NCBI RefSeq assembly: GCF_030814715.1
Contig: NZ_JAUSVO010000002.1
Coordinates: 186,001-250,000 of the forward strand
Reading direction: 5' to 3'
Source: Kaistia dalseonensis
GTDB lineage: Bacteria > Pseudomonadota > Alphaproteobacteria > Rhizobiales > Kaistiaceae
DNA: 64,000 nt
Below, piece after piece: positions 13,049 to 54,416 of this stretch. A program made the translations under genes and the position numbers. The notes below the pieces were generated by a model. It did not search any database and was not told the origin of the DNA. It saw only the letters and a list, made by a program, of their open reading frames with translations. The stretch's first letter is position 1, and every line of letters begins with the position of its first letter.

Positions 13049-13052
13049 CTGT

Positions 13053-15682: not shown

Positions 15683-15720
15683 AGCTCGAAGGCACGGCCG
15701 TGCCGGCCCTCGTGGAAGTC

Positions 15721-26887: not shown

Positions 26888-28204
26888 ATGCCGACGACGA
26901 CCCCATCCGAAGGGCTGCATCGCCTGACGGCCACCGCCGCAGCCGCGGCGATCGCAGCCGGCGAGCTGACGTCGGAGGCGCTCGCCCGAGCGCTGCTCGA
27001 CCGGATCGCCGCACGCGATCCCGCGCTGAAGGCCTGGAGCTTCGTCGATCGCGACGCGGTGCTGCGGACCGCGCGCGAGCTGGACCGTTCGCCGTCCAAG
27101 GGACCTCTGCATGGTGTGCCGATCGGCATCAAGGACATGATCGATACCGCCGACATGCCGACACAGCACAACTCGCCGATCTATGTCGCCCATCAGCCGT
27201 CGCTGGATGCGGCCTGTGTCGAGACATTGCGCGCCGCTGGCGCGCTGATCATCGGCAAGACCGAGACGCTCGAATTCGCCGCCGCCGGCCGCTATGCGCC
27301 GACGGGCAACCCGCATGATCTCAGCCGCTCGCCCGGCGGCTCGTCGAGCGGTTCGGCCGCCGCCGTCGCCGATTTCCAGGTGCCGCTGGCGCTCGGAACG
27401 CAGACGGGTGGATCGACCATCCGTCCGGCCTCGTTCTGCGGCGCCTTCGCGCTGAAGCCAACCTGGGGCGCCGTCAGCCGCGAAGGCGCCAAGTTCTATT
27501 CGGTCACCTTCGACACGATCGGCTGGTACGCCCGCAGCGTCGAGGACCTCGATCTGCTGGCCGAAGTCTATGGCATTGTCGACGATGCACCGCCGCGCAC
27601 GGGCCCGCTTGCCGGCCGCCGCATCGGCTATTGCCTGCCCTTCCCGGACGCGACCAGCGCCGACAGCCGCGAGGCCGTCCTGGCGGCGGTCCGCCACATG
27701 CGCGCCGAAGGCGCGGAAGTGGTCGAGATCGCCCTGCCATCGGTGTTCGCGACATTGAACGATGTCCATAGGGTCATCCTGTTCAGCGAGGGCCGCAGCG
27801 CCTTCCTGAATCTCTACCGGGCGCATTTCGGCGCACTGCACGAGGATTTCCGTCATCGCACCGAGAACCGCGATGGTTTTTCGCGGGCCGATCTCGTCCG
27901 CGCCTATGATACGGCCGCTTCGTGCCGGGTCGCGTTCGAGGAGATCGCATCGAGCTTCGATGCCATTCTCGCCCCGAGCGCGCCGGGCGTGGCCCCGCCC
28001 GGTCGTTGGCACGGCGATCCCGGGCAGAACCAGATCTGGACGCTGCTGCATGCGCCGGTCGTCAACGTGCCCGGCTTCTTCGGCGCGAACGGCCTGCCCG
28101 TCGGCGTCAGCCTGACCGGGCCGCGCTTCTTCGACCGGCAGGTGCTGGCCGTGGCGGCGGCGCTCGCCTCGAGCCTGCCCGAGACGGTGCGCGAGCCGGC
28201 CTGA
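26888..28204 (+). CDS. Amidase-signature family hydrolase (amidase 1)
   Basis: A 438-residue amidase-signature enzyme using a Ser-cisSer-Lys triad: Lys82 in GVPIGIKDMID, the cis-Ser in SPGGSSSGSAA (about residue 153) and nucleophile Ser176 in GTQTGGSTIRP. These enzymes hydrolyse linear amides, ureas or carbamoyl groups in the cytoplasm. The ATG at 26888 has AGGAGAG four bases upstream and is preferred to the ATG at 26870. The gene is divergent from the cysteine hydrolase, both behind near-identical 16-base elements, so they are likely co-induced. Confidence 0.88.
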   Translation: MPTTTPSEGLHRLTATAAAAAIAAGELTSEALARALLDRIAARDPALKAWSFVDRDAVLRTARELDRSPSKGPLHGVPIGIKDMIDTADMPTQHNSPIYVAHQPSLDAACVETLRAAGALIIGKTETLEFAAAGRYAPTGNPHDLSRSPGGSSSGSAAAVADFQVPLALGTQTGGSTIRPASFCGAFALKPTWGAVSREGAKFYSVTFDTIGWYARSVEDLDLLAEVYGIVDDAPPRTGPLAGRRIGYCLPFPDATSADSREAVLAAVRHMRAEGAEVVEIALPSVFATLNDVHRVILFSEGRSAFLNLYRAHFGALHEDFRHRTENRDGFSRADLVRAYDTAASCRVAFEEIASSFDAILAPSAPGVAPPGRWHGDPGQNQIWTLLHAPVVNVPGFFGANGLPVGVSLTGPRFFDRQVLAVAAALASSLPETVREPA

Positions 28205-28317: not shown

Positions 28318-29574
28318 TTAGTGCCGGTGCGGAACCTTGAAATGGGCGATGGCGGCAACCACCGTTCCGGCGAGCGCCAGCACGCCGAAGAACGAGAAGG
28401 TAAGCGTATAGGATTGCGTGCCGCCATAGATCAGCGCGTAGGTCGACGGGCCGACCATCACGCCGATGAAGGTGTAAGTCAGCACTTCGCCCGTCAGCGT
28501 CCCGGCCGCGCCGGGGCTCAACTTCGCCGTCTCGGCCAGCAGGACGCCGTTCCAGCCGATCGAGCAGCCGCCAAGGATGCAGAGCACGATCAGCGTCACC
28601 AATTGGGCGGTGCCGGTCGCGAAATAGAGGAAGAAGCAGCACGCGGCCGTAACCGCGCCCAGGAACGAAAGCACCGCGAAGCCTGACTTGATCCAGTCAG
28701 CGACGAGGCCCCAGACGATGCGGCCGACGGCGCCGCAGGCTTGCACGCCAGCCACCATGGTTCCCGCGGCGATCGGCGTCCAGCCGAACTCGTCGACGAG
28801 CATGGCCACCGTGAAGGTGGAAACACAGAGCTGGATGGCGGAATAGAACAGTCCGAGCAGCGCGAGCGCGCGCAATCCCGGCATAGACCAGACGATCTTC
28901 TGGCCCTTCCAGATGCTGCCCACGACCGCAGCTGTCGGGTCGCGATCCGTATCCCAGACCTTCCGACGCGGATAAAAGGCCGCGCCGAGCGCGAGCGTCG
29001 CGAAGGCGAAGACCAGCAGCGCGACGCGCCAACCCGTCACCGCGCTCAAGGGCGGCATCACCAGCGCGGCGAGGATGCCGCCTACGGGAACGCCGGCCTG
29101 CTTGATCGAATAGACGAGATTGCGCTGTCGCGCCGGCGTGACGCGCTTCAAAATATGCGAGGAAGCCGGATTGTTGAACGCATAGCCGATGCCGATCAGC
29201 ATCGACGCCAGCACCATCACCGGCAGGATCCCGCTCGCCAGGCCGATCAGACCAATGCCGGCGCAATAGAGCGCGAGCTGGGCGATGTGCGCCGAGCCGT
29301 AGCGCTTCACCATGCCGCCAGCGAGCGCCGAAGCGATGATGCCGGCGCAATAGATCAGGCTCACCTGGAAGCCGATCAGATGCGCCGATATGCCAAGATC
29401 GACCGATACGATCGTCGCGACCGTCGCCAGGGCCAACACGGAGGCCGTTGCCAGAACCTGCGACGCCGTGCAGATGGCAAGCGTGCCGGCAAGCTCGGGT
29501 TCCCGGGTGGCAACACCGTGGTTCGGAGCGAGCGGGACGTCGAAAGCGTCCGGTCGGATGTCACGTGAAGTCAT
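28318..29574 (-). CDS. MFS transporter
   Basis: A 418-residue major facilitator superfamily protein with about twelve hydrophobic segments in two halves, separated by a polar stretch around FYPRRKVWDTDRDPTAAVVG (residues about 203-222). The N-terminal cytoplasmic tail is about 35 residues. Sequence does not identify the substrate; context (amidases, hydantoinase, RutA) suggests a nitrogen heterocycle, a cyclic ureide or its carboxylate product. A 14-base palindromic element at 29599-29612 lies 25 bases before the ATG. Confidence 0.88.
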   Translation of the reverse strand: MTSRDIRPDAFDVPLAPNHGVATREPELAGTLAICTASQVLATASVLALATVATIVSVDLGISAHLIGFQVSLIYCAGIIASALAGGMVKRYGSAHIAQLALYCAGIGLIGLASGILPVMVLASMLIGIGYAFNNPASSHILKRVTPARQRNLVYSIKQAGVPVGGILAALVMPPLSAVTGWRVALLVFAFATLALGAAFYPRRKVWDTDRDPTAAVVGSIWKGQKIVWSMPGLRALALLGLFYSAIQLCVSTFTVAMLVDEFGWTPIAAGTMVAGVQACGAVGRIVWGLVADWIKSGFAVLSFLGAVTAACCFFLYFATGTAQLVTLIVLCILGGCSIGWNGVLLAETAKLSPGAAGTLTGEVLTYTFIGVMVGPSTYALIYGGTQSYTLTFSFFGVLALAGTVVAAIAHFKVPHRH

Positions 29575-29598: not shown

Positions 29599-29612
29599 TA
29601 TGTACGAACATA
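29599..29612. promoter_or_regulatory. UTRA-GntR operator-like palindrome upstream of the MFS gene
   Basis: TATGTACGAACATA (reverse complement TATGTTCGTACATA): arms TATGT/ACATA around four bases. It fits the consensus TWTGTYCGKACAWA seen at 30792, 44015 and 44262. Confidence 0.52.
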
Positions 29613-29674: not shown

Positions 29675-30574
29675 TCAGTTCCGCGTGATCGCCACCGAAT
29701 AGAAGAAGCGATCCGCCGGCATGGTGTTGATCGCAACCTCGACGAGGCGCCGCCCGGTGCTGTAATAGCGCCGCGTGATCTGCAATGCCGGCGACCCCAC
29801 CGGCGCATCGAGGCGCTTGGCCATGGCCTCGTCGATGAGGGTCGCGCGAATCTCCTGCTGGATATCGGAGAAGATCTCGCCGGTCTGCTTCTCGACCATG
29901 GCAAACAACGCCGAGCGCATGGTGCGCGGCAACTTCAAATTCTGGCTCACGCGTCCGTCGAGATAGACCTCGACCCAGGACATCGGCCGGCTTTCGCCGT
30001 CGACCGTGCGCGAACAATCAAGCCGGAGCCAGCGATGACCGGAGCGGCAGCCGAGTTCGGTCGCGAGCGCGCCACGGGCCGTCACCATCTCGCTCGAATG
30101 GATCACGACCTCCCAGTCATGCGCGATCTCGATCAGGTCGGAAACGGATGAGGCGGAATAGGTGAATTGGCGCCGGCTGCCCGAAGCCTCGACCCGCGTA
30201 CCCACGCCCTTGCGGGCGGAAAGCTGGCCTTGCTGGCGCAAGACGCCGATCGCCTGGCGCACAGTCTGGCGGCTGACGCTATAGAGCGTCGCGAGTTCGA
30301 CCTCGGTCGGCAGGAGCGATCCAACCGGATAGGTACCCGCGCGAATGGCGTCCTGAAGCGCGCGGGCGAGTGTCAGATAGCGCGGCGTCGAACCGGCCTT
30401 GCGGGTCGAATCGCCCGCCTCCGTGTCGACCAGACGCAGATCAGGCGCCACGACAGACGCTGGGGCCGATACCAGCTCTTCCAGCGATTCCGCTGCACCG
30501 GCTTCGATGGTCGCCGCATCTGCATTCTTCGCCGTGCTCGTCTTGCGTGTCTTCAATGCCGCTCCGACTGTCAT
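29675..30574 (-). CDS. GntR family transcriptional regulator, HutC/UTRA subfamily
   Basis: A 299-residue regulator. A Lys/Thr/Ala-rich N-terminal extension of about 70 residues precedes the winged helix (about 75-140: GSLLPTEVELATLYSVSRQTVRQAIGVLRQQGQLSARKGVGTRV). The C-terminal UTRA domain has RCGHRWLRLD-like and SWVEVYLDGRVSQNLKL stretches and ends AINTMPADRFFYSVAITRN. I use ATG 30574 with GGAGG ten bases upstream. HutC-type proteins bind TGT-N4-ACA palindromes; such elements occur before its neighbours and before rutF, suggesting it controls this 18-kb module. Confidence 0.88.
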   Translation of the reverse strand: MTVGAALKTRKTSTAKNADAATIEAGAAESLEELVSAPASVVAPDLRLVDTEAGDSTRKAGSTPRYLTLARALQDAIRAGTYPVGSLLPTEVELATLYSVSRQTVRQAIGVLRQQGQLSARKGVGTRVEASGSRRQFTYSASSVSDLIEIAHDWEVVIHSSEMVTARGALATELGCRSGHRWLRLDCSRTVDGESRPMSWVEVYLDGRVSQNLKLPRTMRSALFAMVEKQTGEIFSDIQQEIRATLIDEAMAKRLDAPVGSPALQITRRYYSTGRRLVEVAINTMPADRFFYSVAITRN

Positions 30575-30791
30575 CGCCGCCATTCCTCCCGGTTCCGCCC
30601 GCTTTTTTCCGGATCTTCGGCTTTGGACGGATTTATCTGCTGTCCAATCATAGCCCGGCCGCAGCGCTTCCGCCACCCGCCGGGCTGGCATCGACCAGAC
30701 CAGAGCACTCACGGCGCGAGCCGTTGCGCCCAATTTGTGCAGCGCGGCAAGTCGTTGCGCAATTTGGCCTCAAATCGCCGCACCGCATGCT

Positions 30792-30805
30792 TTTGTCCGG
30801 ACAAA
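30792..30805. promoter_or_regulatory. UTRA-GntR operator-like perfect palindrome
   Basis: TTTGTCCGGACAAA is a perfect 14-base palindrome between the divergent regulator and importer genes. It matches the consensus TWTGTYCGKACAWA shared with the MFS and flavin-reductase promoters, so it is the best-formed member of the set. Confidence 0.6.
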
Positions 30806-30939: not shown

Positions 30940-32076
30940 ATGGTGCACATCGCTTCCGTCCGCGTGCCGGCATTGGCCGGCATCGCCGCCCTAATGGTTG
31001 CGGCTGCCGGCTCGCTGGCCGCCGTTTCGCCGGCCGCCGCCGCCGGACCCGACCTTGCCGCTGCGCAGGCCATCGTCGACGCGCATAGCAAGATCCCGGA
31101 TTTCGTCCCGCCCGGCCCGCCGTTCGACGCCAAGGCCTGCATGGCCGGCAAGAAGCTGCTCTCCATCCCGGTCTCGAGCTCGATACCCTTCGTCGACGGC
31201 ATCGAAAGCTCGATGGCCGGCGTCGCCAAGGAAATCGGCTTCGAGTTCCAGCAGTGGAAGAACCAGGGCCAGCCGACCCAATGGGTCCAGGGCATGGAGT
31301 TCGGCACGAATAACGGCTTTACCGCGATCGACCTGATGGGCGGCATCATCCCGTCCTCGCTCGGCCCGCAGGTTGCCGCCGCGAAGGCGGCCGGCGTGCA
31401 TGTCTTCGCCTCGCACTATGCCGACACGACGCAGCCGCGAGACCCGGCCGCCGAGGTCAATCTCGCGCTGCCGTTCAACGAGGTCGGCAAGACGATCGCC
31501 GCGTGGATCACGGTGAAAACCGGCGGCAAGGCCAACGTGCTGATCATCGGCTCGGAAGACGTGCTGCCGACCGATCCCTACCGCAAGAAGATCGAATCGA
31601 CGCTGGACGAGCTCTGCGGCGACGGCTGCAAGCACAGCTACGTCAACGTGACGATTCCGAACTGGTCAACCAAGATCCAGACCACCGTGCAGTCGGCACT
31701 GATCGCCGATCCGACGATCAACTACATCGTTCCAGTCTACGACAGCATGTCGCAATTCGTTCTGCCGGCGCTGACGATCACCGGACGGAAGGACGTCAAG
31801 ATCGCGACCTTCAACGGTACGCCGTTCATCATCGACATGATCCAGAAGGGCGATGTCGAGATGGATGTCGGCGAGAGCCTCGGCTGGATCGCACGCTCGA
31901 CGCTCGACGGCTACATGCGCAAGCTCTGCGGCCTCGAGACCTACGACACGCTGAACGTGCCACTCTACATCTTCTCGGCCGAGAATGCGAAGGATGCCGG
32001 CGTGCCGGCCGATTTCGACAAGGGCTATGGCGACAAGCATGTGGATGGCTTCGCCAAGCTGTGGGGGCTGAAGTGA
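30940..32076 (+). CDS. ABC transporter periplasmic substrate-binding protein, ribose-like (importer 3)
   Basis: A 378-residue Peripla_BP_4-type protein with a signal peptide (about 35 residues, cleavage likely after AAAAG-like stretch). Ligand-lobe motifs include FTAIDLMGGIIPSSLG near 125, AAGVHVFASHYADTT near 150 and INYIVPVYDSMSQFVLPAL near 265. Two cysteine pairs are visible in the mature part (around 68 and in ELCGDGCKH near 225-233). The ATG at 30940 has GAGGGAGA upstream. Ligand unknown; the regulon suggests a heterocycle or nucleobase-related compound rather than ribose. Confidence 0.86.
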   Translation: MVHIASVRVPALAGIAALMVAAAGSLAAVSPAAAAGPDLAAAQAIVDAHSKIPDFVPPGPPFDAKACMAGKKLLSIPVSSSIPFVDGIESSMAGVAKEIGFEFQQWKNQGQPTQWVQGMEFGTNNGFTAIDLMGGIIPSSLGPQVAAAKAAGVHVFASHYADTTQPRDPAAEVNLALPFNEVGKTIAAWITVKTGGKANVLIIGSEDVLPTDPYRKKIESTLDELCGDGCKHSYVNVTIPNWSTKIQTTVQSALIADPTINYIVPVYDSMSQFVLPALTITGRKDVKIATFNGTPFIIDMIQKGDVEMDVGESLGWIARSTLDGYMRKLCGLETYDTLNVPLYIFSAENAKDAGVPADFDKGYGDKHVDGFAKLWGLK

Positions 32077-33671
32077 TCGCCGATCCGAGGCAGGACGACC
32101 TGCCTCGGAAAGTGCCGGGGGAAGCCCCGGCACTTTCCATCCGGCATCTGTCCAAGCGCTTCGGCAGTTCACTGGTGCTGAACGACGTCGCGCTCGACGT
32201 CATGCCGGGCGAAGTGCACGGCCTGCTCGGCCAGAATGGTTCCGGCAAGTCGACGCTGATCAAGGTGCTCGCCGGCTTTCATGACCCGGAGCCGGGCGCG
32301 GAACTTTCAATGTATGGCGAGGCCGCCGAACTGCCGATGCCGGCCGGCGCGGCGCGGCGCCTTGGCATCGCCTTCGTGCACCAGCATCTCGGCCTGATCC
32401 CGTCGCTGTCGGTGCTCGAAAACCTCTTGCTCGGAGATCTCGCGGCCGCCAATCTCTGGCGGATCGACTGGCGGCGCGAGGCGGCCAAGGCACGCGAAAC
32501 CTTCGCCCGCTTCGGGCTCGATATCGACCCCCGCGCACGGATCGGCGACCTGCCGCAGGTTTCGCGCGCACTGGTCGCAATCGTTCGCGCCTTCGAGGAT
32601 GTGCGCCAGCATTCGGCCGGCGGACGCGGCTTGCTCATTCTCGACGAGCCGACGCCCTTCCTGCCGAAGGCCGGTGTCGACCAGTTGTTCGGGCTCGTGC
32701 GCGGCATCGTCAAGGCTGGCGCCAGCGTCATCTTCGTCTCGCACGATATCGATGAAATTCGTGAGATCACCGACCGGGCGACGATCCTGCGCGACGGCAA
32801 TCTCGCCGGCACGGTCGTGTCGAAGACGGCCGACCACGACCAGTTCATCGAGCTGATCGTCGGCCGCCGCGTTTCGCTCTATCAAGCCGAGAAGCCTGAA
32901 TTCTCCGGCCGGCCCGTGGCAGCCACGATCCGTAATGCCGGCGGAGGACTCGTCGACAACGTCTCCTTCGATGTGCGGAAGGGCGAGATCGTCGGGCTGA
33001 CCGGGTTGATCGGATCCGGCTCCGATGCACTGCCCTATCTGCTCTATGGCGCAAAGCCGGCCACTTCGGGCACGATCGAAATCGCTGGAAACAAGCCATT
33101 GCCGCTTGCTGGGCTAAAACCCGGCAATGCGATGGCGGCAAAGATCGCGTTCCTCCCGGCTGATCGTCTCGGCGCGGCCGGCGTCGGCAACCTCACTATT
33201 GCCGACAACATGTCGCTTCCCGTCCTGACCGAATTCCGCAACTGGAGCGGGCTCGACTGGGGCGCGATAACCGAACGCGCGCGCCAGCTCGGCCAGCGCT
33301 ACGACGTCCGCCCCAATCGGCCGGAGCTCAATCTATCAGCGCTCAGCGGCGGCAACGCCCAGAAGGTGCTGATGGCGAAATGGCTCCAGACCGAGCCGGC
33401 GCTGCTGATGCTCGACGAGCCGACGCAAGGCGTCGATGTCGGCGCGCGCCAGCACCTGTTCGCTGCCCTCGATTCCGCAGCCGAAAAGGGAACATCGATC
33501 CTGGTCGCGAGCACCGATTCCGAGCAGCTCGCCCAGATCTGCCACCGCGTTCTCGTCTTCGCCCGCGGCCGCATCGTCAAGGAACTGACGGGCGCTGAGA
33601 TCACGAAGGACAGGATCGCCGAGGAGTGCCTGAGGAGCATGAGTTCCGCAACCCTATCGGAGGCCGCATGA
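32073..33671 (+). CDS. ABC transporter ATP-binding protein, ribose-type double NBD (importer 3)
   Basis: A 532-residue double-ATPase protein. It starts at GTG 32073, overlapping the binding-protein stop (GTGA). Domain 1 has Walker A GQNGSGKST (about 53-61) and Walker B LLILDEPTPF, but its signature region reads LPQVSRALVAIVRAF with no LSxGQ motif. Domain 2 has the degenerate P-loop GLIGSGSDALPYL and a good signature LSGGNAQKVLMAKWL with LMLDEPTQGVDVG. The sequence diverges clearly from importers 1 and 2. Confidence 0.9.
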   Translation: MIADPRQDDLPRKVPGEAPALSIRHLSKRFGSSLVLNDVALDVMPGEVHGLLGQNGSGKSTLIKVLAGFHDPEPGAELSMYGEAAELPMPAGAARRLGIAFVHQHLGLIPSLSVLENLLLGDLAAANLWRIDWRREAAKARETFARFGLDIDPRARIGDLPQVSRALVAIVRAFEDVRQHSAGGRGLLILDEPTPFLPKAGVDQLFGLVRGIVKAGASVIFVSHDIDEIREITDRATILRDGNLAGTVVSKTADHDQFIELIVGRRVSLYQAEKPEFSGRPVAATIRNAGGGLVDNVSFDVRKGEIVGLTGLIGSGSDALPYLLYGAKPATSGTIEIAGNKPLPLAGLKPGNAMAAKIAFLPADRLGAAGVGNLTIADNMSLPVLTEFRNWSGLDWGAITERARQLGQRYDVRPNRPELNLSALSGGNAQKVLMAKWLQTEPALLMLDEPTQGVDVGARQHLFAALDSAAEKGTSILVASTDSEQLAQICHRVLVFARGRIVKELTGAEITKDRIAEECLRSMSSATLSEAA

Positions 33672-34693
33672 GCCAGGTTCACACTGAGAGCAGCCCTACC
33701 CGGATGGCGCCCCGTGGCGGCGCATCCCGTGCGCCGTTCCAATGGGCGCGCTTTGCCGAATCCTTCGCGCTGGTCGGCGCGTTGCTGATCCTGTTCGCGA
33801 TCTTCGGCATATTGAAGCCGCAGGCCTTCCTGTCCTGGGCCAACATCTCAACCATGCTCGGCTCACAGGCCGTGCTGGTTCTGCTGACGCTCGCCCTGAT
33901 CATCCCGCTGACCGCGGGTGATTTCGACCTTTCCATTGCCGCGACGCTCACCATGTCGGCGATGACCATCGCGGTCCTCAATGCGCAGATGGGCATTCCG
34001 CTCGCTGGCGCCGTGGCCGTCGCAATCGCGATTGGCGCAATCATCGGCTGCGTCAATGCAGGCTTCATCCTGTATTTCCGCATCCCCTCGCTGATCGTCA
34101 CGCTCGGCACGGGCACCTTCATCAATGGTCTCGTGCTCTGGATCAGCAATTCCAACACGATCAGCGGTATCGATCCCTTCCTGGTCACCTATGTCGTGGT
34201 GACGCGTGTCTTCGGCATCCCGCTCGCCTTCTACTACGCGCTCGGGCTCTGCATCCTGCTCTGGTACTTCTTCGGGTTCACGGCCGCCGGCCGGCGCCTG
34301 CTGTTCGTGGGGCGTGGACGCGAGGTGGCGCGTCTTTCGGGCATCCCCGTCGACAGGGTGCGGTTTGCTGCCCTGGTCTGCTCCGGCGTGCTCAGCGCGA
34401 TCACGGGCATGATGTATGCCGGCACGATCGGCGCGGCGGATCCGAACTCGGGCAACACCTTCCTCCTGCCGGCCTTCGCCGCCGCCTTCCTCGGCGCGAC
34501 GAGCATAACGCCGGGACGCTTCAACGCCTGGGGATCGCTGGTCGCGGTGTATTTCCTGGTCATCGGCATTACGGGGCTGACGATGCTCGGCATCGATACC
34601 TTCGTGCAGAACCTGTTTTATGGTGGCGCGCTGGTGCTGGCCGTGGCGTTGTCGCAGCTCGTACGCAAGCGCGAAGCGCAGGACTTCAGCTAA
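33668..34693 (+). CDS. ABC transporter permease, ribose-type (importer 3)
   Basis: A 341-residue RbsC-like permease with about nine or ten hydrophobic helices after a polar, Ser/Pro/Arg-rich N-terminal tail of about 30 residues. It contains LTAGDFDLSIAATLTMSAM near 88-106 and the coupling loop RRLLFVGRGREVARLSGIPVDRVRFA near 210-236. The ATG overlaps the ATPase stop (ATGA). With the two upstream genes it forms a complete importer. Confidence 0.9.
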   Translation: MSQVHTESSPTRMAPRGGASRAPFQWARFAESFALVGALLILFAIFGILKPQAFLSWANISTMLGSQAVLVLLTLALIIPLTAGDFDLSIAATLTMSAMTIAVLNAQMGIPLAGAVAVAIAIGAIIGCVNAGFILYFRIPSLIVTLGTGTFINGLVLWISNSNTISGIDPFLVTYVVVTRVFGIPLAFYYALGLCILLWYFFGFTAAGRRLLFVGRGREVARLSGIPVDRVRFAALVCSGVLSAITGMMYAGTIGAADPNSGNTFLLPAFAAAFLGATSITPGRFNAWGSLVAVYFLVIGITGLTMLGIDTFVQNLFYGGALVLAVALSQLVRKREAQDFS

Positions 34694-36604: not shown

Positions 36605-36781
36605 TCAGCGGCGGCGGAGATGAAGATCGAGCACAGGGGCGGGCTCGGCGAATTCGTCGAGCGTCCGCTTCGTGTTGGCGACATTCGAGCGCACGATCTT
36701 CGCGATCTCGCGCATCCGCGCCAGCGCCTCCGGCGTGAAATCGGCCGGCAGGCGAACGTCGGCGAAATTGTCGTCTGACAT
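36605..36781 (-). CDS. Small protein downstream of amidase 2 (possible GatC/AtzG-like amidase partner)
   Basis: A 58-residue protein starting MSDDNFADVRLPADF and ending EPAPVLDLHLRRR, encoded 9 bases after the amidase 2 stop with a good GAGGGG ribosome-binding site. A helix (about 16-45) followed by an acidic, proline-containing tail resembles the layout of small GatC/AtzG-type subunits that wrap around amidase-signature enzymes. The likeness is by size, position and tail, not by a firm motif. Short length makes it easy to miss; coding potential is supported by the ribosome-binding site and operon spacing. Confidence 0.6.
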   Translation of the reverse strand: MSDDNFADVRLPADFTPEALARMREIAKIVRSNVANTKRTLDEFAEPAPVLDLHLRRR

Positions 36782-36790
36782 CGAAGCCCC

Positions 36791-38209
36791 TCAGAATGTC
36801 GGGAAGTGCGAGCGCCACGGCGTCGCGGTCTCATAGGCATGGCCGACGCGCAGGACCATCGCCTCGTCGAACCATCGACCGACGATCTGCGCACTCGTCG
36901 GCAGGCCTTCGCTATCGAAACCGGTGCAGATCGACAGCGCCGGATGGCCCGACATGCTGAAGGGCGTTGCGGCCGTATCGCCGATGAACGCACCGAGGCC
37001 GGCGGCGTCCGTGAAGGCAGGCGCCACATGGAAAGCCGAGGGCAACAGCAGCGCATCGAAGCCCGAGAGCAAGGCGTCGGTCATTTCGGCGAGCGTCCGC
37101 CGCTCGCGCAGCGCGGCGAGATAATCGACGGCCGAGATTTGAAGCCCAGCCGTCATCTTGTCGCGCAGCGCCTGGCCCATGAGATGCCAGCCCGACTGGA
37201 AATCGGCCTCGTGGATCGAATAGGACTCAGCCCAGTTGATGATCGACGCGGCCGAGCGATAGCGCAGCACCGGCGCGGGAAGCTCCGTTTCCACGAGGAT
37301 CGCGCCGGCCGCCTGCAGAACCCGCGCGGCCTCGGCGAGATTGGCGAGAACGTCCGGATCGGGATGCACGCCGCCACAATCCATGTCGCGGATCACGCCG
37401 ATGCGAAGCCCGGCCACACCCTTGTTCAGATCGGAGCGGAAATCGGCGGGCTTGTCGACGCTGATCGGGTCCGAAGGATCGAAACCCGAGAGCGCCTCAG
37501 CGACGATCGCGCAATCTTCGACATTCCAGCAGAGCGGGCCAGCGACGTCGAAGGCCCAGCAATTGGGAAAGATGCCGTGCCGGCTGATGCGTCCGGTCGT
37601 GGATTTGAGGCCCTGCAGGCCGCAGGCGGCGGCCGGGAGGCGGACCGATCCGCCGGTATCGCTGCCGAGCGCGAACAGCGCAGTGCGCCCGGCGACCGAT
37701 GCACCCGCCCCCGTCGACGAACCGCCCGTGTAGCGATCGAGGTTCCAGGGGTTGCGAGCATAGGGAAACGGCAGGTCGTCATAGAAGGGGCCCATGCCCG
37801 TGCCATATTCCCAGGTGTTGAGCTTGCCGAGCAGGATCGCGCCGGCCTCCCTCAGCCTCACGATCGCCGTGGCGTCAAAATCCGGCACGGCATCGAGCCG
37901 AAGCCGCGAATTTGCCGTCGTGCGCACGCCCTTCGTGAAGTAATTGTCCTTCACGGCATAGGGCAGCCCATGCAGCGGGCCGCGATACTCTCCCGCCGCG
38001 ATCTCCGCCTCGGCCTGAGAGGCTGCCGCGCGCGCCTCGTCGGCCAGCACTGTGATATAGCTGCGCAGGCGGCCATCCACGGTCTCGATGCGATCGAGAT
38101 AGGCATCGACGAGTTCGACGGGCGAGAGAGCGCGGGCGGCGATGGCGTCCGATGCCTGGCGCAGCGTCAGCCCGAGGATCGCTTCGGGCTTTGTCCTGTC
38201 GATCACCAT
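36791..38209 (-). CDS. Amidase-signature family hydrolase (amidase 2)
   Basis: A 472-residue amidase-signature protein. The triad is Lys87 in GLPYAVKDNYF, cis-Ser at 164-165 in YTGGSSTGAGASV and nucleophile Ser188 in GSDTGGSVRLP. The layout matches GatA/AtzE/allophanate-hydrolase-type enzymes acting on carbamoyl amides. ATG 38209 begins one base after the hydantoinase stop; a longer upstream frame starting at GTG 38296 would overlap that gene by about 85 bases and is rejected. It is followed by a small gene that may encode its partner subunit. Confidence 0.88.
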   Translation of the reverse strand: MVIDRTKPEAILGLTLRQASDAIAARALSPVELVDAYLDRIETVDGRLRSYITVLADEARAAASQAEAEIAAGEYRGPLHGLPYAVKDNYFTKGVRTTANSRLRLDAVPDFDATAIVRLREAGAILLGKLNTWEYGTGMGPFYDDLPFPYARNPWNLDRYTGGSSTGAGASVAGRTALFALGSDTGGSVRLPAAACGLQGLKSTTGRISRHGIFPNCWAFDVAGPLCWNVEDCAIVAEALSGFDPSDPISVDKPADFRSDLNKGVAGLRIGVIRDMDCGGVHPDPDVLANLAEAARVLQAAGAILVETELPAPVLRYRSAASIINWAESYSIHEADFQSGWHLMGQALRDKMTAGLQISAVDYLAALRERRTLAEMTDALLSGFDALLLPSAFHVAPAFTDAAGLGAFIGDTAATPFSMSGHPALSICTGFDSEGLPTSAQIVGRWFDEAMVLRVGHAYETATPWRSHFPTF

Positions 38210-38210
38210 C

Positions 38211-39638
38211 TCAGACGGCCGGGCCGGAGCGGATGTCGTCGGCAATCTTGCGCGGGATGAAGGCGCCGTCAGTGAGTTCGCCATTGAACTGGCCACCTTC
38301 GACCACGACCTTGCCGCGCAACATGGTCAGGCTCGGCCAGACCGAGACATCCCAGCCATCCCATGGAGAATAATCGGCGGAGTGCAATGCCGAGCCGTCG
38401 ATCGTGTGGGCGAGGTTCGGATCGAGCAGCACGACATCGGCGTCGGAACCGACCGCGAGCACGCCCTTGCGCGGATAAAGCCCCATGATCCGCGCTGCCT
38501 TGGTCGAGACGAGGTCGACGAACTCATTCAGGCTGAAGCCACGCTTGCCGACCATTTCCGTATACATCAACGCAACGCGCGGTTCGCAGCCGGAATTCCC
38601 CCCGGTCGTGTCGTCGATGCGCTTGCCCACCAGCTTGACCTCGAGCGGGCAGCAGACCTCGTCGGTCGCGACGCAGCTGAGAACGCCGTCCTTCATGCCG
38701 CGCCAGAGCGCCGCCTGGTCGTCCGGATATTTGAGCGAGGGATAGGTATGGTAGATCTGCCCGTTCGGGCGCTTGTAGTCCTCGACATTGAACAGCGCAT
38801 ATTGATGCAGCGTCTCGCCATAAATGGGGAAGCCCTTCGCCCGTGAGGCGGCGATCGCGTCGACGCCGGTGCGCGCGCTCGTATGGACCATGTACATAGC
38901 CGCGCCCTCGACATTTTGCGCCAGCGCGATAACCCGGTTGAAGGCGAGTTCCTCCGACAGGACGGTATGCGCTTCGGCGAGATGCTCGAAGCCAACGCGA
39001 TCCTCGGCAATCAGCTTCTCATACATGTGCATGACGAGGTCATTGTCCTCGGCATGGATCAGCGCCAGCCCGCCGGACTTGGCGAGTTGCTTCAGCATCT
39101 CCCAGATCTCGCCATGGTTGGTGAGATGAGCGAGGCGGCCCGGCGTGATGTCGGTCGTGAACATCTTGACGGTCGGATAGCCGGCTTGCACCAACTCCGG
39201 CACCTCACCGATGATGGACGGGCCCATCGGGCTCTCGACCGCCATGTGCAGCGTGTAATCGCTATAGCAGGCGTCGGTCCAGCTCTCGTGCCGCTTCTCG
39301 ACGGTCTGCTGCAGCGTGCCGCTGCCCTGCCAGAACGCGAAATCGCACATCGTCGTCGTGCCGCCAAATAACGCGGCCTTGCTGACCTCGGCCGGTGTCG
39401 CGCCGGTGACGGACGTGCCGTTCGGGCCGGGCATGGTCAACCCGCAATGGATATGCGGATCGATGCCGCCTGGAATGACGATCTGGTCCGTCGCGTCGAC
39501 CACCCGCTCGGCGCCGATGGCGCCCAGCGTCTTCGGAGCTGCGATGGCAACGATCTTGCCTCCCTTGACGCCGATATCGACGCGTTCGGGGCCCGTGGGC
39601 AGCACGGCGAGGCCATTGGCGATAACAACGTCGAACAT
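38211..39638 (-). CDS. D-hydantoinase/dihydropyrimidinase family cyclic amidohydrolase
   Basis: A 475-residue amidohydrolase that opens cyclic imides or ureides by hydrolysing the ring amide. The binuclear metal site is complete: His62 and His64 in DPHIHCG, the carbamylated Lys158 in YPTVKMFTTD, His195 in LIHAEDND, His252 in MVHTSAR and Asp326 in VATDEVCCP. The stereochemistry loop after Lys158 (TTDITPG) differs from the FMAYK form common in characterised hydantoinases, so the substrate may not be hydantoin or dihydrouracil. It overlaps the cobW stop by one base. Confidence 0.9.
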   Translation of the reverse strand: MFDVVIANGLAVLPTGPERVDIGVKGGKIVAIAAPKTLGAIGAERVVDATDQIVIPGGIDPHIHCGLTMPGPNGTSVTGATPAEVSKAALFGGTTTMCDFAFWQGSGTLQQTVEKRHESWTDACYSDYTLHMAVESPMGPSIIGEVPELVQAGYPTVKMFTTDITPGRLAHLTNHGEIWEMLKQLAKSGGLALIHAEDNDLVMHMYEKLIAEDRVGFEHLAEAHTVLSEELAFNRVIALAQNVEGAAMYMVHTSARTGVDAIAASRAKGFPIYGETLHQYALFNVEDYKRPNGQIYHTYPSLKYPDDQAALWRGMKDGVLSCVATDEVCCPLEVKLVGKRIDDTTGGNSGCEPRVALMYTEMVGKRGFSLNEFVDLVSTKAARIMGLYPRKGVLAVGSDADVVLLDPNLAHTIDGSALHSADYSPWDGWDVSVWPSLTMLRGKVVVEGGQFNGELTDGAFIPRKIADDIRSGPAV

Positions 39639-40690
39639 CAGGCGTCTCCAGGCAAAGCGGAAAGGGAAGCGAGCGGGACAGGCGGAGCGTCGCAGGCGAA
39701 GCCCGGCGGCAGCTTCTGCCAGGGCCTCGGATCGGCAAAGGCGAAGCGGGCGAGGATGTCGTCGAGGCCGACGCCGCGGACGATGAAGACGAGCCTGCTG
39801 CGCTCGTCTTCATCCGGCCAGCGATCCAGCCACTGCGGCCGATAGAGCGTGTGCTGGACCGCATGCATGACGCCGACGAAACCGGGCCGATCGGCGAATT
39901 CGACCAACCCCTTCACGCGCAGGAGATCTTCTCCGCGTTCCGAGGCGAGGCGGCCAAGAGCCATGGCGAAGGCGAGGCGCGTCGGAGCGGAGCGCAGCGT
40001 GATCGAAAAGGTCTCGATGCCGAAGCTGTGGGCGGGCTTCGGTAGGGCCGCCGGCATGCGCTCGAGGAAACCGGAAAGCCCGACGTCGAACAGGAGCTTT
40101 GCCAGCGCACCATCGGTGGGCAGCGTGATCTGCGGCGCCCAGGGGTTCAGTGCGGCGAGACGGGCCAGAAGATCTGGCGACGGCGCGCGGAGATCGGTCT
40201 TGCTGAGCAGCAGCCGATCGGCCACGGCGACCTGAGCCGCCGCCTCGGGATGGCGTTCCAGGGATCCCCCTCCCGCGACCGCATCGACCAGCGTCACCAC
40301 GGCACTGAAGGCGAGCCGGTGGCCGAGCATCGGATCGACGGCAAGCGTGTAGAGGATCGGCGCGGGATCGGCGAGACCGCTCGTCTCGATGACGATGCGG
40401 TCGAAGGGCTGGATCGTGCCGTCATCGCGCCGCTCGAGCAGCGAGCGCACGGTGGTCACGATATCGAGCCGGCGCACGCAGCAGAGACAGCCGCTCGGCA
40501 GGGCGTAGATCGCCTCGTCGACCGTCTCGACGAGGAGGTGATCGAGACTGGCGTCGCCAGCCTCGTTGATGATGACCGCCGTGCCGGCCATGTCCGGGGC
40601 AGCCAGGATCGCCTTCAGGAGGGTGGTCTTGCCGCTGCCGAGAAAGCCCGTCAGCAATGCAATCGGGATCTTGGGGACTGCGGACGTCAT
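39638..40690 (-). CDS. CobW/COG0523 family GTP-dependent metallochaperone
   Basis: A 350-residue P-loop GTPase of the CobW/P47K family: Walker A GFLGSGKTT (residues about 15-23), the metal-binding GCLCC motif near 67-71, the SKTD guanine-specificity element near 162 and a C-terminal CobW_C domain ending in Pro/Ala-rich sequence. These proteins insert metals, often Zn, into client enzymes. Placement between amidase 3 and the metal-dependent hydantoinase (overlapping the latter by one base) suggests that the hydantoinase is the client. Confidence 0.9.
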   Translation of the reverse strand: MTSAVPKIPIALLTGFLGSGKTTLLKAILAAPDMAGTAVIINEAGDASLDHLLVETVDEAIYALPSGCLCCVRRLDIVTTVRSLLERRDDGTIQPFDRIVIETSGLADPAPILYTLAVDPMLGHRLAFSAVVTLVDAVAGGGSLERHPEAAAQVAVADRLLLSKTDLRAPSPDLLARLAALNPWAPQITLPTDGALAKLLFDVGLSGFLERMPAALPKPAHSFGIETFSITLRSAPTRLAFAMALGRLASERGEDLLRVKGLVEFADRPGFVGVMHAVQHTLYRPQWLDRWPDEDERSRLVFIVRGVGLDDILARFAFADPRPWQKLPPGFACDAPPVPLASLSALPGDA

Positions 40691-40717
40691 TTCCCTCCCC
40701 TTCAGGTAGGCTCTGGA

Positions 40718-42280
40718 TCAGTCGATCGGATCCGGCGGGGCGTTCCGGTGATGGTCGGTCAGTTGCTGGAAGGCAGCGCCGACCGAAAGGCAGAGCGCAT
40801 CGTCATAGAGCTTGCCGACGATCTGGATCGCGACCGGCAGGCCATTCGCGCCAAGGCCGGAAGGCAGCATCAGCGCCGGCTGGCCCGTATAGTCGAACAC
40901 CATGGTGTTGCGCGGGATGACATTGTGGAACGGCTGGCGCTTGCCATCGACGGAAGCTGCCAGATCGTCCAGGAAGCCAGCCTCGCTGCCGAGGCCCGGT
41001 GTCACGACCACGTCGACATCGGCCATCGCGGCGAGGATGCGCGACTGCACGACGGGTCGCAGGCGAAGCGCGCGCAGATACTGCGTCGCCGAGCGAGCAA
41101 GCCCTTGCTCGAGCCTGCCGCGGGTGCCGGCATCATAGAGTTCCATCGAGCCGAGGCTCGGCTCCTGCAGCGTAGCGAGCTCGCAGAACAGGATCGTGTA
41201 GCCATCTTCGACAACGCTGCCGATCTCGCCGAGATCGACGGGGACCAGCGTTGCGCCGGCCTCTTCCATCACGCCGAGCGCCGCGCGCCATGCCGCGAGC
41301 ACCGAGGCATCCTGCATCTCGACGAACCAGCCGCCCGGCACGCCGATCCTGAGACCGGCGAAGCCATTGCGCCAGCGCGAGCCGTCATAAGCGCCGGCAG
41401 ACGTGAAATCCTCGCCATCGGCACCGGCGATCTGCGGCATGACCAATGCGAGATCGGCGGCGCTGCGCCCCATCGGGCCGATATGATCGAGCGTCCATGA
41501 CAGCGGCGCCACGCCCGTGCGGGGGACGAGCCCGCGCGTCGGCTTCAGGCCGGTCGTGCCGCACCAGGCGGAGGGCACGCGGATCGAACCGCCAGTGTCG
41601 GTGCCAAGCGCCAGTGGGAACAGCCGCGCCGCGAGCCCGGCGCCGGAGCCGGTTGACGATCCGCCGGTCCAGCGTTCGGAGTCCCATGGATTGCGCACAG
41701 GCCCATAGCGCGCATTGAGCGCCGAACCACAGGCGAACTCGGTTGTCGCGGTCATCACGAAGGGAATCGCACCCGCCGCCTTCAGCCGCGCCACAACGGC
41801 GGAATCGGCTGGTGCAACCCTGTCGCCAGTCTGCAGCGAGCCGCAGGTGACGCGGGCCCCGGCCGCATCAATGATATCCTTGACGCCGAAGGGGATGCCC
41901 TCGAGTGGGCGCATGCGGCGCTCGCGAATGCGCAGTGCGCTCTCCTCCGCCAGCGCGTCTGCGCCGGGAATGGGTGCGAGAATGGCATCGAGACCCGAGC
42001 GATAGCGAGCAATCCGCGCTCGCAGCGCGGCCAGCACGCCGACCGGATCGAGATTGCCCGTCTCATAGGCCGCAAGCAGCCCGGCGACGCCGAGTTGATG
42101 CGGCTCGCCGGTGACATCGACAGCGACCGCAGGCGAAGGCGATGGCCGGACCTCGGCCACCTCCGCCGCCATGCGCCGTTCGAACCAGAGCGGCTCAGGT
42201 GCAAGCCCGCTCGCCGCTTCCGGGAACGAGCTCGACGGCGCAACCGCCGTCGGCCTCAACTCGACCACTGGGGCGCTCAC
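40718..42280 (-). CDS. Amidase-signature family hydrolase (amidase 3)
   Basis: A 520-residue amidase with an N-terminal extension of about 60 residues. The triad is Lys134 in PFGVKDIID, cis-Ser at 208-209 in [12 protein letters not shown] and nucleophile Ser232 in [11 protein letters not shown]. The start is the GTG at 42280, which overlaps the rutA stop (GTGA) and has GGAGG four bases upstream. Coupling to rutA suggests it hydrolyses the ureido-acid that RutA releases, in place of RutB; this is inference. It diverges from amidases 1 and 2 in the loop sequences. Confidence 0.88.
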
Positions 42281-43359
42281 GCCGCCTCCGCGAGCCGTTC
42301 GGCGCGGCTCTGCATCAAGGGCTGGATGTGCTCGCCGAACTTCTCGATGCCGGTCAGGAAGTCATCGAAGGTCATCATAATGCCCTTCGTCCCGGGAACC
42401 GCCGCGACCTCGTCGAGCATCCGCGCGACGGTCGCATAGGAGCCCACCAGGGTGCCCATGTTGAAGTTCACGGCGCCTTCGGGGAGGTTGATGTGACGGG
42501 CCGTCGAATTGCTGTCGGCCGTCTGGTCCTTGCTGCCCTGGTCCGCCATCCAGGCGAGCGCGTCGACATCCGCGCCTTCGCGATATTTCAGCCACTTCGC
42601 CTGTGCTTCCTCGTCCGTCTCTTCGGCGATCACCATGAAGAGGACGTAGGTGCCGACGTCACGGCCAGCCTTCTTCGCCGCCTCGACCATGCGCTCGTTG
42701 AACGGCGCGAACTTGGTCGGCGTGTTGATGCCGGAGCCCATGGCGAAGGTGTAGTCGCAAAGATTGGCCGAGAACTCGATGCCCGTCGGGCTCTGGCCCG
42801 CCGCGACGATCTTGATCGGCGTCGACGGGGTCGGCTTCATCATGCAGCCGTCCATGGTGAAATGCTTGCCCTTGAAGTCGGAATTGCCCGTTGCCCAGAG
42901 CTCCTTCATCACCGAGACGTATTCGGTCGCGTATTCGTAGCGGTATGCGAAATATTCGTCGCCCGGCCAGAGGCCCATCTGCGTGTATTCGGCCGACTGC
43001 CAGCCCGACACGATGTTGACGCCGAAGCGACCGCCCGAGATCGAATCGATCGTGGTCGCCATGCGTGCGACGATGGCCGGAGGGAGCGTCAGGATGGCGG
43101 TCGAGGCGAAGAGCTTGATCTTGGTCGTCACGGCGGCGAGGCCCGCCATCAGCGTGAACGACTCCATGCCGTAATCCCAGAACTCGGTCTTCCCGCCGAA
43201 GCCGTGCAGCTTGATCATCGACAGCGCGAAGTCGAAATCATAGCGCTCGGCAAGCTGGACGATCTGCTTGTTCAGCTCGAAGCTCGGCATGTATTGCGGC
43301 GCTGCCGTCGAGATCAGCCAGCCATTGTTGTTGATCGGAATGAAAACGCCGATATCCAT
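42277..43359 (-). CDS. rutA: RutA pyrimidine monooxygenase (bacterial luciferase-like flavoenzyme)
   Basis: A 360-residue luciferase-like flavin monooxygenase recognisable as RutA. Characteristic stretches are [20 protein letters not shown] at the start, [20 protein letters not shown] near 36-55, [31 protein letters not shown] near 92-122 and [22 protein letters not shown] near 227-248. E. coli RutA uses reduced FMN and O2 to cleave the uracil ring amide, giving a ureidoacrylate product. Ribosome-binding site AGGAG. It follows rutF, which would supply the reduced flavin. Confidence 0.94.
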
Positions 43360-43400
43360 CGTGAGATCTCCTTGAACAGCTTCAAAAGAACGGGACGGCC

Positions 43401-43934
43401 TCAGCCAGCGGAAAGTCCGTGATAGCGACGGGCGAAATAGACGAGCCCATCGCGAGCATGATCGATTTCAATCGAAAGGACGTTGCAGAACAGGACATCA
43501 TGCGTGCCGCTCTCGACCACCTTGGTGACGCGGCAATCAAACGCCACGACCGATCCGTCGAGCACCGGCGCGCCGGTCTCGCGCGTGCTCCAGCCGGCGG
43601 AAGCGAAGCGCTCCGCCATCGGCGTCTTGCCGCCGAACAAGCGCGAAATCGCCTCGTGATCGCGCGCGAGCGTATTCACGCAGAGCACGCCGTTGCGCTT
43701 GAACGTGTCGTAGACGGAGGCCTGACGGTTCAGGCAGACGAGCAGCGTCGGCGGCGTATCGCTCACGCTGCAGACGGCCGATGCGGTGAAACCGGCGCGT
43801 CCCGCCGGCCCGTCCGTCGTCACGATGTTCACGGCCGCACCGAGGCGCGCCATGCCCTCGCGAAACAGCAACCGTACATCCGGAATCGACGCCGAAGGCG
43901 CAGGCGGTGTCGTGGTGACCGTTTCGACCTGCAT
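43401..43934 (-). CDS. rutF: RutF-type NADH:FMN reductase
   Basis: A 177-residue flavin reductase-like protein closely resembling Rut[43 protein letters not shown] (about 26-67), then [26 protein letters not shown] and [17 protein letters not shown]. It reduces FMN with NADH for RutA. The ATG at 43934 begins MQVETVTTT; an upstream in-frame start reaches into the promoter element. It is the first gene of the minus-strand operon with rutA, amidase 3, cobW, hydantoinase, amidase 2 and the small ORF. Confidence 0.93.
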
Positions 43935-44014: not shown

Positions 44015-44028
44015 TATGTCCGTACACA
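44015..44028. promoter_or_regulatory. UTRA-GntR operator-like element upstream of rutF
   Basis: TATGTCCGTACACA fits TWTGTYCGKACAWA at all but one position. It lies 80 bases upstream of the rutF start. Confidence 0.5.
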
Positions 44029-47576: not shown

Positions 47577-47583
47577 GGCCCCG

Positions 47584-49793: not shown

Positions 49794-49832
49794 CCAAAAA
49801 GAACCTTCCAGGGACTACAGGAGCAAGACCAG

Positions 49833-50939: not shown

Positions 50940-50942
50940 TCG

Positions 50943-54414: not shown

Positions 54415-54416
54415 CC

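What the first reader, a model, noticed from the sequence alone, without database searches (positions are those of the whole stretch)
36605..43934. Hybrid operon of RutF-RutA with hydantoinase, two amidases, CobW and a small partner: candidate new ring-degradation route
rutF and rutA occur without rutB, C, D, E or G. Instead they are translationally coupled to amidase 3, then cobW, a D-hydantoinase-type enzyme, amidase 2 and a 58-residue protein. Known uracil catabolism uses either oxidative (Rut) or reductive (dihydropyrimidinase) ring opening; here both ring-opening enzyme types are in one operon. A substrate with two ring-amide bonds, such as a substituted or fused cyclic ureide, would need successive openings and amide hydrolyses. 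Import would be by importer 3 and/or the MFS protein.
Basis: partly seen in the sequence, partly recalled or inferred. Interest (0 to 1): 0.8.

Follow-up and report, generated by a model that had tools for sequence, protein, structure and literature searches.

The report
Amidase-type rut locus with added hydantoinase
A conserved set of bacterial genes combines an oxygen-using ring-opening enzyme with a water-using ring-opening enzyme, several amide-cutting enzymes and its own importer; it looks like an unusual way to feed on a uracil-like ring compound, but which compound is not known.

Summary
On the minus strand, 43934-36605, lie rutF, rutA, an amidase-signature (AS) amidase, cobW, a hydantoinase-family gene, a second AS amidase and a 58-codon gene. 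It is a real unit: in genome G076 the same set recurs with the same importer, GntR and MFS genes, and large parts of it recur in Acidisoma and a MAG; a shared palindrome sits in their promoters. The unit is larger than reported: a malonamidase-like amidase (26888-28204) and probably an isochorismatase-family hydrolase (26035-26703) belong with it. Rhizobium rhododendri and Palleronia plasmids carry rutA, amidases, the same importer type, MFS and GntR but no hydantoinase or CobW. So there is an amidase-type rut locus, and hydantoinase-CobW-amidase is a module added in four genomes. The host has a complete reductive uracil pathway elsewhere and no RutB, C or D over the cut-offs and no RutE match, so this hydantoinase is not its dihydropyrimidinase. 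Best reading: oxidative plus hydrolytic opening of pyrimidine-like cyclic ureides towards a malonyl C3 unit. Substrate and order of steps are not shown.

The parts
26035..26703 (-). IsoH: isochorismatase-family hydrolase (distant RutB relative)
   Evidence: PF00857; 25% to E. coli RutB and 66% to an isochorismatase directly after a rutA copy in genome G497; family members within 9 kb of rutA in G076, R. rhododendri, Palleronia and A. vitis, none found in the Acidisoma and MAG stretches
26888..28204 (+). Amd3: AS amidase, malonamidase-E2-like
   Evidence: PF01425; best solved relative malonamidase E2, 204 bits, shared GTQTGGSxIRPA motif; homologues of 45-62% in 9 of 24 non-canonical rutA stretches and 0 of 8 with RutB, C or D
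28318..29574 (-). MFS transporter
   Evidence: PF07690; relatives in 6 of the 8 loci of the table
29599..29612 (.). Palindrome TATGTACGAACATA, candidate GntR operator, upstream of the MFS gene
29675..30583 (-). GntR/UTRA-family regulator
   Evidence: PF00392 and PF07702; relatives in 6 of the 8 loci of the table
30792..30805 (.). Weaker palindrome (2 mismatches) between GntR and importer genes
30940..32076 (+). Importer, periplasmic binding protein (Peripla_BP_4)
   Evidence: 72-74% in the three sister clusters
32073..33671 (+). Importer, ABC ATPase (two ABC_tran stretches)
   Evidence: 69-72% in sister clusters
33704..34693 (+). Importer, permease
   Evidence: PF02653; 75-77% in sister clusters
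36605..36781 (-). 58-residue protein, putative non-catalytic partner of AmdB
   Evidence: no family; conserved next to AmdB in four genomes
36791..38209 (-). AmdB: AS amidase (start taken at ATG 38209; longest ORF begins at 38296)
   Evidence: PF01425; 63-67% in sister clusters; start codon context
38211..39638 (-). Hyd: hydantoinase/dihydropyrimidinase-superfamily cyclic amidohydrolase
   Evidence: PF01979; TIGR02033 300 bits, below cut-off; 74-77% in sister clusters, one clade at 100/100 support
39638..40690 (-). CobW-family GTPase, putative metallochaperone for Hyd
   Evidence: PF02492 and PF07683; a CobW relative lies in 24 of 28 fetched loci of this Hyd subfamily
40718..42280 (-). AmdA: AS amidase
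   Evidence: PF01425; best solved relative 'biuret hydrolase' 6c62, 187 bits
42277..43359 (-). RutA: FMN-dependent pyrimidine-type monooxygenase
   Evidence: TIGR03612 628.8 bits; 66% to E. coli RutA
43401..43934 (-). RutF: flavin reductase (longest ORF begins at 44033)
   Evidence: TIGR03615 255.6 bits; 62% to E. coli RutF over residues 57-207 of the longest ORF
44015..44028 (.). Palindrome TATGTCCGTACACA, candidate GntR operator, 81 nt upstream of the RutF start at 43934

Best explanation
This is a single catabolic regulon of an amidase-type rut locus, extended by a hydrolytic ring-opening module. A GntR regulator controls an ABC importer, an MFS transporter and the rutF-to-small operon (inferred from synteny and the shared palindrome). 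RutF supplies reduced FMN; RutA, whose oxygen pocket is conserved, oxidatively cleaves a ring amide of a uracil-like ring to a ureido acid (inferred from family). AS amidases and the isochorismatase-family hydrolase take over from RutB, RutC and RutD: IsoH and/or AmdA strip the ureido nitrogen, and Amd3 hydrolyses a malonamate-like C3 amide (inferred). Hyd, metallated with help of CobW, opens a second, saturated or 6-oxo cyclic ureide or imide, either a later intermediate or a related substrate, and AmdB with its small partner hydrolyses the product (inferred). The carbon ends as malonate or malonic semialdehyde, which the host could oxidise through a methylmalonate-semialdehyde dehydrogenase in its reductive pathway cluster; G076 and Palleronia carry RutE relatives instead. 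Shown by computation: gene content, conservation, promoter palindrome, conserved residues, separate reductive pathway. Inferred: substrate class, order of steps, product.
For: rutA-amdA-cobW-hyd-amdB-small plus importer, GntR, MFS and rutF in G076, a different family of the same order; large parts of it in Acidisoma cellulosilyticum and a Solirubrobacterales-labelled MAG, where rutA-GntR-MFS lie on another contig. The Hyds of the four clusters form one clade (100/100). Palindrome TATGTNCGNACATA: 7 sites with at most 1 mismatch in 3,757 nt of cluster intergenic DNA vs 0.06 expected from 6 in 365,679 control bases; 3 of the 7 were used to derive it and the control DNA is mostly coding. Host RutA keeps L65, V136, F224 and N134, with T105S (E. 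coli 382-aa numbering); the review PMC7662398 (passages) says these line the dioxygen pocket and that T105S keeps about 80% activity. Amd3 is closest to malonamidase E2 among solved structures; relatives of at least 45% lie in 9 of 24 non-canonical rutA stretches and in 0 of 8 with RutB, C or D. A CobW relative lies in 24 of 28 loci of the Hyd subfamily.
Against: The gene set is not uniform: Acidisoma lacks rutF and an AmdA orthologue (best 36%) in its stretch, the MAG lacks rutF in both stretches and has rutA on another contig, and IsoH is 35% to its G076 counterpart and not found in the Acidisoma and MAG stretches. 12 of 24 non-canonical rutA stretches have no Amd3 relative at all and 3 only weak ones; an Azospirillum Amd3 relative lies beside isochorismatase genes with no rutA seen. 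Host RutA is nearer to that of R. rhododendri, whose locus has no Hyd, than to those of the Hyd clusters, so RutA does not track Hyd. No family model names the substrate of Hyd or of any amidase. IsoH is only 25% identical to RutB. The small protein shows no detectable similarity to AtzG. A Hyd loop differs from ordinary hydantoinases (VKMFTTDITPG against KVFMAY), so its activity is uncertain.
Confidence: 0.5

Rival explanations
1. Two parallel activities under one regulator: RutA and the amidases degrade uracil, barbiturate or a similar pyrimidine, while Hyd-CobW-AmdB independently uses a hydantoin or cyclic imide taken up by the same importer. Both openers never act on one molecule.
For: Rut loci without Hyd/CobW exist with the same importer type, MFS and GntR (R. 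rhododendri, Palleronia). 23 of 28 fetched loci have Hyd and CobW relatives but no RutA hit in the stretch held. Host RutA is closest to the R. rhododendri copy.
Against: Hyd and AmdB lie in the same gene string as rutA in three genomes, and all four genomes with this Hyd clade also have a RutA of the amidase-type group.
Confidence: 0.33
2. A redundant uracil/thymine pathway: an ordinary Rut variant whose RutB, C and D are replaced by non-homologous amidases, with Hyd as a passenger.
For: RutA is 66% identical to E. coli RutA with a conserved oxygen pocket. RutE relatives lie in the G076 and Palleronia loci.
Against: The host already has a complete clustered reductive pathway with PreT-like protein, PreA, dihydropyrimidinase, carbamoylase-family amidase, aminotransferase and semialdehyde dehydrogenase. 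Three AS amidases and a CobW-linked Hyd are not needed for uracil.
Confidence: 0.15
3. The substrate is a sugar-linked pyrimidine or nucleoside-like compound, brought in by the ribose-type importer and freed by a nucleoside hydrolase.
For: The binding protein is of the Peripla_BP_4 class. A nucleoside hydrolase and a TRZ/ATZ-family amidohydrolase lie within about 12 kb of the operon in the window and within 9 kb of the MFS gene in G076. Epimerases 42-52% alike lie near rutA in G076 and directly before rutA in two further Acidisoma loci.
Against: The nucleoside hydrolases belong to different importer clusters in the two genomes and lie outside the conserved set; no epimerase was found in the window cluster.
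Confidence: 0.15
4. Chance neighbourhood of unrelated catabolic genes.
For: AS amidases and ABC importers are common; of 14 genus members only the host has a RutA over the cut-off.
Against: Synteny across families, one Hyd clade, and shared promoter palindromes.
Confidence: 0.03

Closest known systems
E. coli Rut pathway (rutABCDEFG)
   Same: RutA and RutF are members by curated models; RutE relatives recur in G076 and Palleronia loci.
   Different: No RutB, RutC or RutD over cut-off and no RutE match in the genome; AS amidases, a GntR regulator and an ABC importer instead; Hyd and CobW added.
Reductive pyrimidine pathway (PreAT, dihydropyrimidinase, beta-ureidopropionase)
   Same: Hyd is of the same superfamily as dihydropyrimidinase.
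   Different: Hyd falls below TIGR02033; the true pathway is a separate cluster on contig C8.
Cyanuric acid operon atzDGEHF of Pseudomonas sp. ADP
   Same: AS amidase with an adjacent small gene; AmdA's nearest solved relative is the biuret hydrolase 6c62 (that this is AtzE is recalled). [quoted passage not shown]
   Different: AmdA and AmdB are 32-35% to AtzE and below its family cut-off; no detectable AtzG homology; no AtzD seen.
Oxidative barbiturase/ureidomalonase pathway (recalled)
   Same: AS-type hydrolysis of a ureido acid to a malonyl product (recalled, no call).
   Different: No barbiturase among the proteins scanned, genome not searched for it; ring opening by RutA and Hyd instead.
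Malonamidase E2
   Same: Closest solved relative of Amd3, shared GTQTGGSxIRPA motif.
   Different: Part of a rut locus; activity untested.

Membership tests
Rut pathway | RutA | tested here: met
   TIGR03612 628.8 vs 498.3 bits; oxygen-pocket residues kept, T105S
Rut pathway | RutF | tested here: met
   TIGR03615 255.6 vs 254.75 bits, a narrow pass
Rut pathway | RutB | tested here: not met
   best in the genome 128 bits vs 377.95
Rut pathway | RutC and RutD | tested here: not met
   best 71 vs 169 bits and 78 vs 238.5 bits
Rut pathway | RutE | tested here: not met
   no match in the own genome at E 1e-5; the same E. coli protein finds one in G076 at 68%
Rut pathway | RutG transporter | tested here: inconclusive
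   none in the window; genome not searched
Dihydropyrimidinase (reductive pathway) | TIGR02033 over cut-off | tested here: not met
   300 vs 393 bits; another gene of the genome scores 576
Dihydropyrimidinase (reductive pathway) | linkage to PreA/PreT and beta-ureidopropionase | tested here: not met
   these are on contig C8, the window is on C2
Hydantoinase-type cyclic amidohydrolase | metal ligands HxH, carboxylated Lys, two His, Asp | tested here: met
   H62, H64, K158, H195, H252, D326 by motif position; the ligand roles are recalled
AtzE/AtzG-type amidase complex | AtzE family score | tested here: not met
   TIGR02715 226.5 (AmdA) and 242.6 (AmdB) vs 425.75 bits
AtzE/AtzG-type amidase complex | GatC/AtzG-like small subunit | tested here: inconclusive
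   adjacent conserved small gene, but no hhalign match to AtzG and a low-confidence model, pLDDT 67.5
Malonamidase | hydrolysis of malonamate | not testable with these tools
   sequence similarity only
Barbiturase pathway | barbiturase (AtzD-type fold) | not tested
   genome not searched for it

The most novel reading that the evidence does not exclude
A further kind of pyrimidine or cyclic-ureide catabolism in which RutA oxidatively opens one amide bond and a CobW-metallated hydantoinase hydrolytically opens another bond of the same substituted or fused heterocycle, with AS amidases and a malonamidase finishing to malonate.
Probability: 0.25. Interest if true: 0.8.

Novelty: new variant of a known kind. 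Interest (0 to 1): 0.62.

Why it matters
Genes annotated rutA are read as uracil use. In the rutA stretches compared here, those with RutB, C or D never had the malonamidase-like amidase, and nine others had it without RutB, C or D. If this amidase type degrades something other than uracil, the annotation of many rutA genes is misleading, and RutA's rare flavin-N5 chemistry would have a second natural substrate that can be sought with a defined regulon, importer and promoter motif. It also links a CobW GTPase to one hydantoinase subfamily, a testable chaperone-client pair.

Tried and rejected
Ordinary dihydropyrimidinase: rejected. Chance neighbourhood: rejected. AtzG homology of the 58-residue protein: sought with Pfam at E up to 10, a PDB profile search, hhalign and AlphaFold (mean pLDDT 67.5, one long and one short helix); no support, so a GatC/AtzG-like role is inference from position and size. 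Small genes beside amidases in R. rhododendri, Thioclava, Palleronia and another Acidisoma locus do not align convincingly with it. Substrate clues from neighbours of Hyd loci without rutA: mixed (RNB-domain protein, topoisomerase, S41 and M20 peptidases, molybdopterin oxidoreductase, acyl-CoA dehydrogenase, enolase-superfamily protein), no consistent hint. A first RutA tree showed the Hyd-cluster RutAs plus one Acidisoma copy as a clade (100/99); this does not stand once plasmid RutAs are added. I first took the search tool's '1 TAA' in one Acidisoma RutA for an internal stop; it is the gene's terminal stop at codon 353. Lumichrome idea: RutA with riboflavin and lumichrome listed five papers, unrelated by title and abstract. 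Print searches: RutA+RutF+hydantoinase+amidase none; two or more of pyrimidine monooxygenase, RutA, RutB, gene cluster: 716 papers, 20 listed; COG0523 with hydantoinase or dihydropyrimidinase none; malonamidase+Arg158 none; ureidomalonase+barbiturase+amidase one, listing only; three or more of RutA, isochorismatase, amidase, uracil: 10 papers listed, passages of two seen (PMC7662398; PMC12285263, a canonical plasmid rut operon); hydantoinase+CobW one paper, passages seen, whose hydantoinase-B and CobW genes lie apart on a fosmid with other catabolic clusters. The library is open-access only, so this does not show absence from print.
Full report
WHAT IS THERE. Seven genes on the minus strand between 43934 and 36605 were examined by profile searches: RutF, RutA, an AS amidase (AmdA), a CobW-family GTPase, a hydantoinase-superfamily protein (Hyd), a second AS amidase (AmdB) and a 58-residue protein. 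RutA is well over its curated cut-off, RutF just over, Hyd clearly under the dihydropyrimidinase cut-off. Gene ends overlap or lie within 41 nt, so an operon with translational coupling at RutA/AmdA, CobW/Hyd and probably Hyd/AmdB is a fair reading. The 58-residue gene has only weak chance hits in Pfam at E up to 10, but homologues in the same place exist in three other genomes, so it is very unlikely to be a spurious ORF.

IS IT MORE THAN CHANCE. In genome G076, of another family of the same order, rutA, amdA, cobW, hyd, amdB and the small gene follow in the same order, the first five with 61-77% protein identity to the window, next to the same importer (71-77%), GntR (59%) and MFS (56%) genes; rutF and a rutE relative lie divergently beside rutA. 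Acidisoma cellulosilyticum has rutA-cobW-hyd-amdB-small, importer, GntR, MFS, an Amd3 and a fourth amidase, but no rutF or AmdA orthologue in the 21 kb held. A MAG labelled Solirubrobacterales has amdA-cobW-hyd-amdB-small-importer on one contig and rutA-GntR-MFS on another, with no rutF in either stretch; its label may be wrong, because its cluster genes are about as close to the alphaproteobacterial ones as those are to each other. The four Hyds form one clade at 100/100. The cluster is rare: Hyd at 70% or more was found only in the host and G076 among 397 genomes of the order, in no other of 385 genomes of the class, and in two of 28 loci from the named genome collection. Of 14 genus members, the host included, only the host has a RutA over the cut-off, which fits gain by horizontal transfer.

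A SHARED PROMOTER SIGNAL. A palindrome search of cluster intergenic regions found TATGT-N4-ACATA in four loci, which suggested the pattern TATGTNCGNACATA. In the window it lies before the MFS gene (29599), weakly between GntR and importer (30792, two mismatches) and 81 nt before RutF (44015). Three matches with up to two mismatches in the window compare with 0.41 expected; 2 of 100 shuffles reached three. In the four Hyd clusters 7 sites with at most one mismatch in the ten palindrome letters fall in 3,757 nt of intergenic DNA, against 0.06 expected from 6 sites in 365,679 control bases; an eighth, in G076, straddles the called MFS start. Three of the seven were used to derive the motif, so only four are independent, and the control DNA is mostly coding, so the true expectation is somewhat higher. 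No site was found in the MAG's rutA-GntR-MFS contig or in the Thioclava and Novosphingobium stretches. The signal ties the rutF operon, the MFS gene and, more weakly, the importer into one regulon, probably of the GntR protein.

THE UNIT IS LARGER THAN REPORTED. Amd3 (26888-28204) is 62% and 60% identical to amidases in the G076 and Acidisoma clusters, is closest to malonamidase E2 among solved structures (204 bits) and shares the motif GTQTGGSxIRPA with it; 7 of 9 homologues from rutA loci, the window included, carry GTQTGGSxxRPA. IsoH (26035-26703) is an isochorismatase-family protein, 25% to RutB, 35% to the G076 counterpart, and 66% to one directly after a rutA copy in genome G497.

AN AMIDASE TYPE OF RUT LOCUS. 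The plasmid collection gave 64 records with a RutA relative, of which I opened six; a search with Amd3 gave five records, of which I opened two more. Rhizobium rhododendri (RutA 79% identical), Palleronia and Thioclava have rutA with GntR and AS amidases; the first two also have the same importer type, MFS and an IsoH relative. Novosphingobium and Allorhizobium ampelinum (vitis) S4 have rutA with amidases. None of these five has Hyd or CobW in the stretch held. The Azospirillum record has an Amd3 relative with isochorismatase genes and a second amidase but no rutA was seen. Over all 32 stretches of at least 7 kb with a RutA of 50% or more, 8 have RutB, C or D relatives and none of these has Amd3; of the other 24, 9 have Amd3 at 45-62%, 3 at 32-37% and 12 none. 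Several stretches were reached through Hyd or Amd3 themselves, so these ratios are descriptive. There are thus canonical loci, amidase-type loci and rutA genes with neither set. In the RutA tree with 25 rows the canonical ones group together (99/97); the window, the other Hyd-cluster copies, R. rhododendri, Thioclava, Novosphingobium, Palleronia and two further Acidisoma copies fall in one group with weak support (90/88), and the window's nearest row is R. rhododendri.

THE HOST'S OTHER PATHWAYS. On contig C8 lie a PreT-like protein, PreA (738 vs 335 bits), an aminotransferase AptA (776 vs 500), a methylmalonate-semialdehyde dehydrogenase (729 vs 448.5), a hydantoinase/carbamoylase-family amidase (390 vs 204) and dihydropyrimidinase (576 vs 393). 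The PreT-like protein stays below every NCBIfam cut-off shown but is 36% identical to E. coli PreT and lies directly before preA. The reductive pathway is thus complete by gene content, and separate. No RutB, C or D passes its cut-off and no RutE match is found.

HOW IT PROBABLY WORKS. Host RutA keeps L65, V136, F224 and N134, and has T105S (E. coli 382-aa numbering); the same T-to-S change is in the G076 and Acidisoma copies (position 86 there). The review PMC7662398 (passages only) states that these residues form the dioxygen pocket and that T105S keeps about 80% activity, so N5-type oxidative amide cleavage is likely retained. Hyd keeps the expected metal ligands by position, but its loop after the lysine differs from D-hydantoinases, so its substrate probably differs. 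A cobW relative lies in 24 of 28 loci of its subfamily, which suggests a dedicated metallochaperone. A malonamidase-like amidase with RutA and a RutB-superfamily hydrolase would fit an entering ring at barbiturate level (ring to ureidomalonate, to malonamate, to malonate); this chemistry is my inference. RutE relatives in the G076 and Palleronia loci fit malonic semialdehyde as an end product instead. Whether RutA and Hyd act on the same molecule is open: the rutA loci without Hyd argue for independence, the common gene string in three genomes for cooperation.

LIMITS. Genomes and loci were sampled and partly selected, several loci are cut by contig ends, ORFs in unannotated records come from a simple codon-usage caller that chose the wrong strand in places, and I know of no biochemical test of any gene of the locus.

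Noticed in passing
L053 (G032:C34:22000-41000), 7711-15780: Four tandem rutA-like genes, 53-56% to E. coli RutA, with a flavin reductase, an isochorismatase relative, an Amd3-like amidase and an asparaginase.
   Followed up: partly
L119 and L120 (G784, Acidisoma): Further rutA loci with a paralogous Peripla_BP_4 importer (L119) or another ABC importer and an AmdB-like amidase (L120), each with an epimerase directly before rutA and an SDR gene.
   Followed up: partly
G784, G785, G790, G497: Several RutA-like genes per genome (3 to 5 over the family cut-off in each of G784, G785, G790 and G497) against one in the host.
   Followed up: partly
window 44404-44922: A second flavin reductase, divergent from rutF, 48% to the flavin reductase in the G032 rutA array.
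   Followed up: partly
window 46021-55379: Cytochrome P450, TRZ/ATZ-family amidohydrolase, Bmp-type importer and nucleoside hydrolase just beyond the locus; an amidohydrolase and nucleoside hydrolase also lie near the G076 cluster.
   Followed up: partly
window 35056-36528: A DUF1254/DUF1214 protein between importer and operon; no relative showed up in the sister clusters.
   Followed up: no
L134 2548-3123 (Thioclava): A riboflavin-precursor gene (3,4-dihydroxy-2-butanone-4-phosphate synthase) near the rutA-amidase locus, perhaps for FMN supply.
   Followed up: no
L132 (Arthrobacter megaplasmid): A 43% relative of Hyd within 11 kb of an isochorismatase relative (33% to RutB) and an AS amidase in an actinobacterium.
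   Followed up: partly
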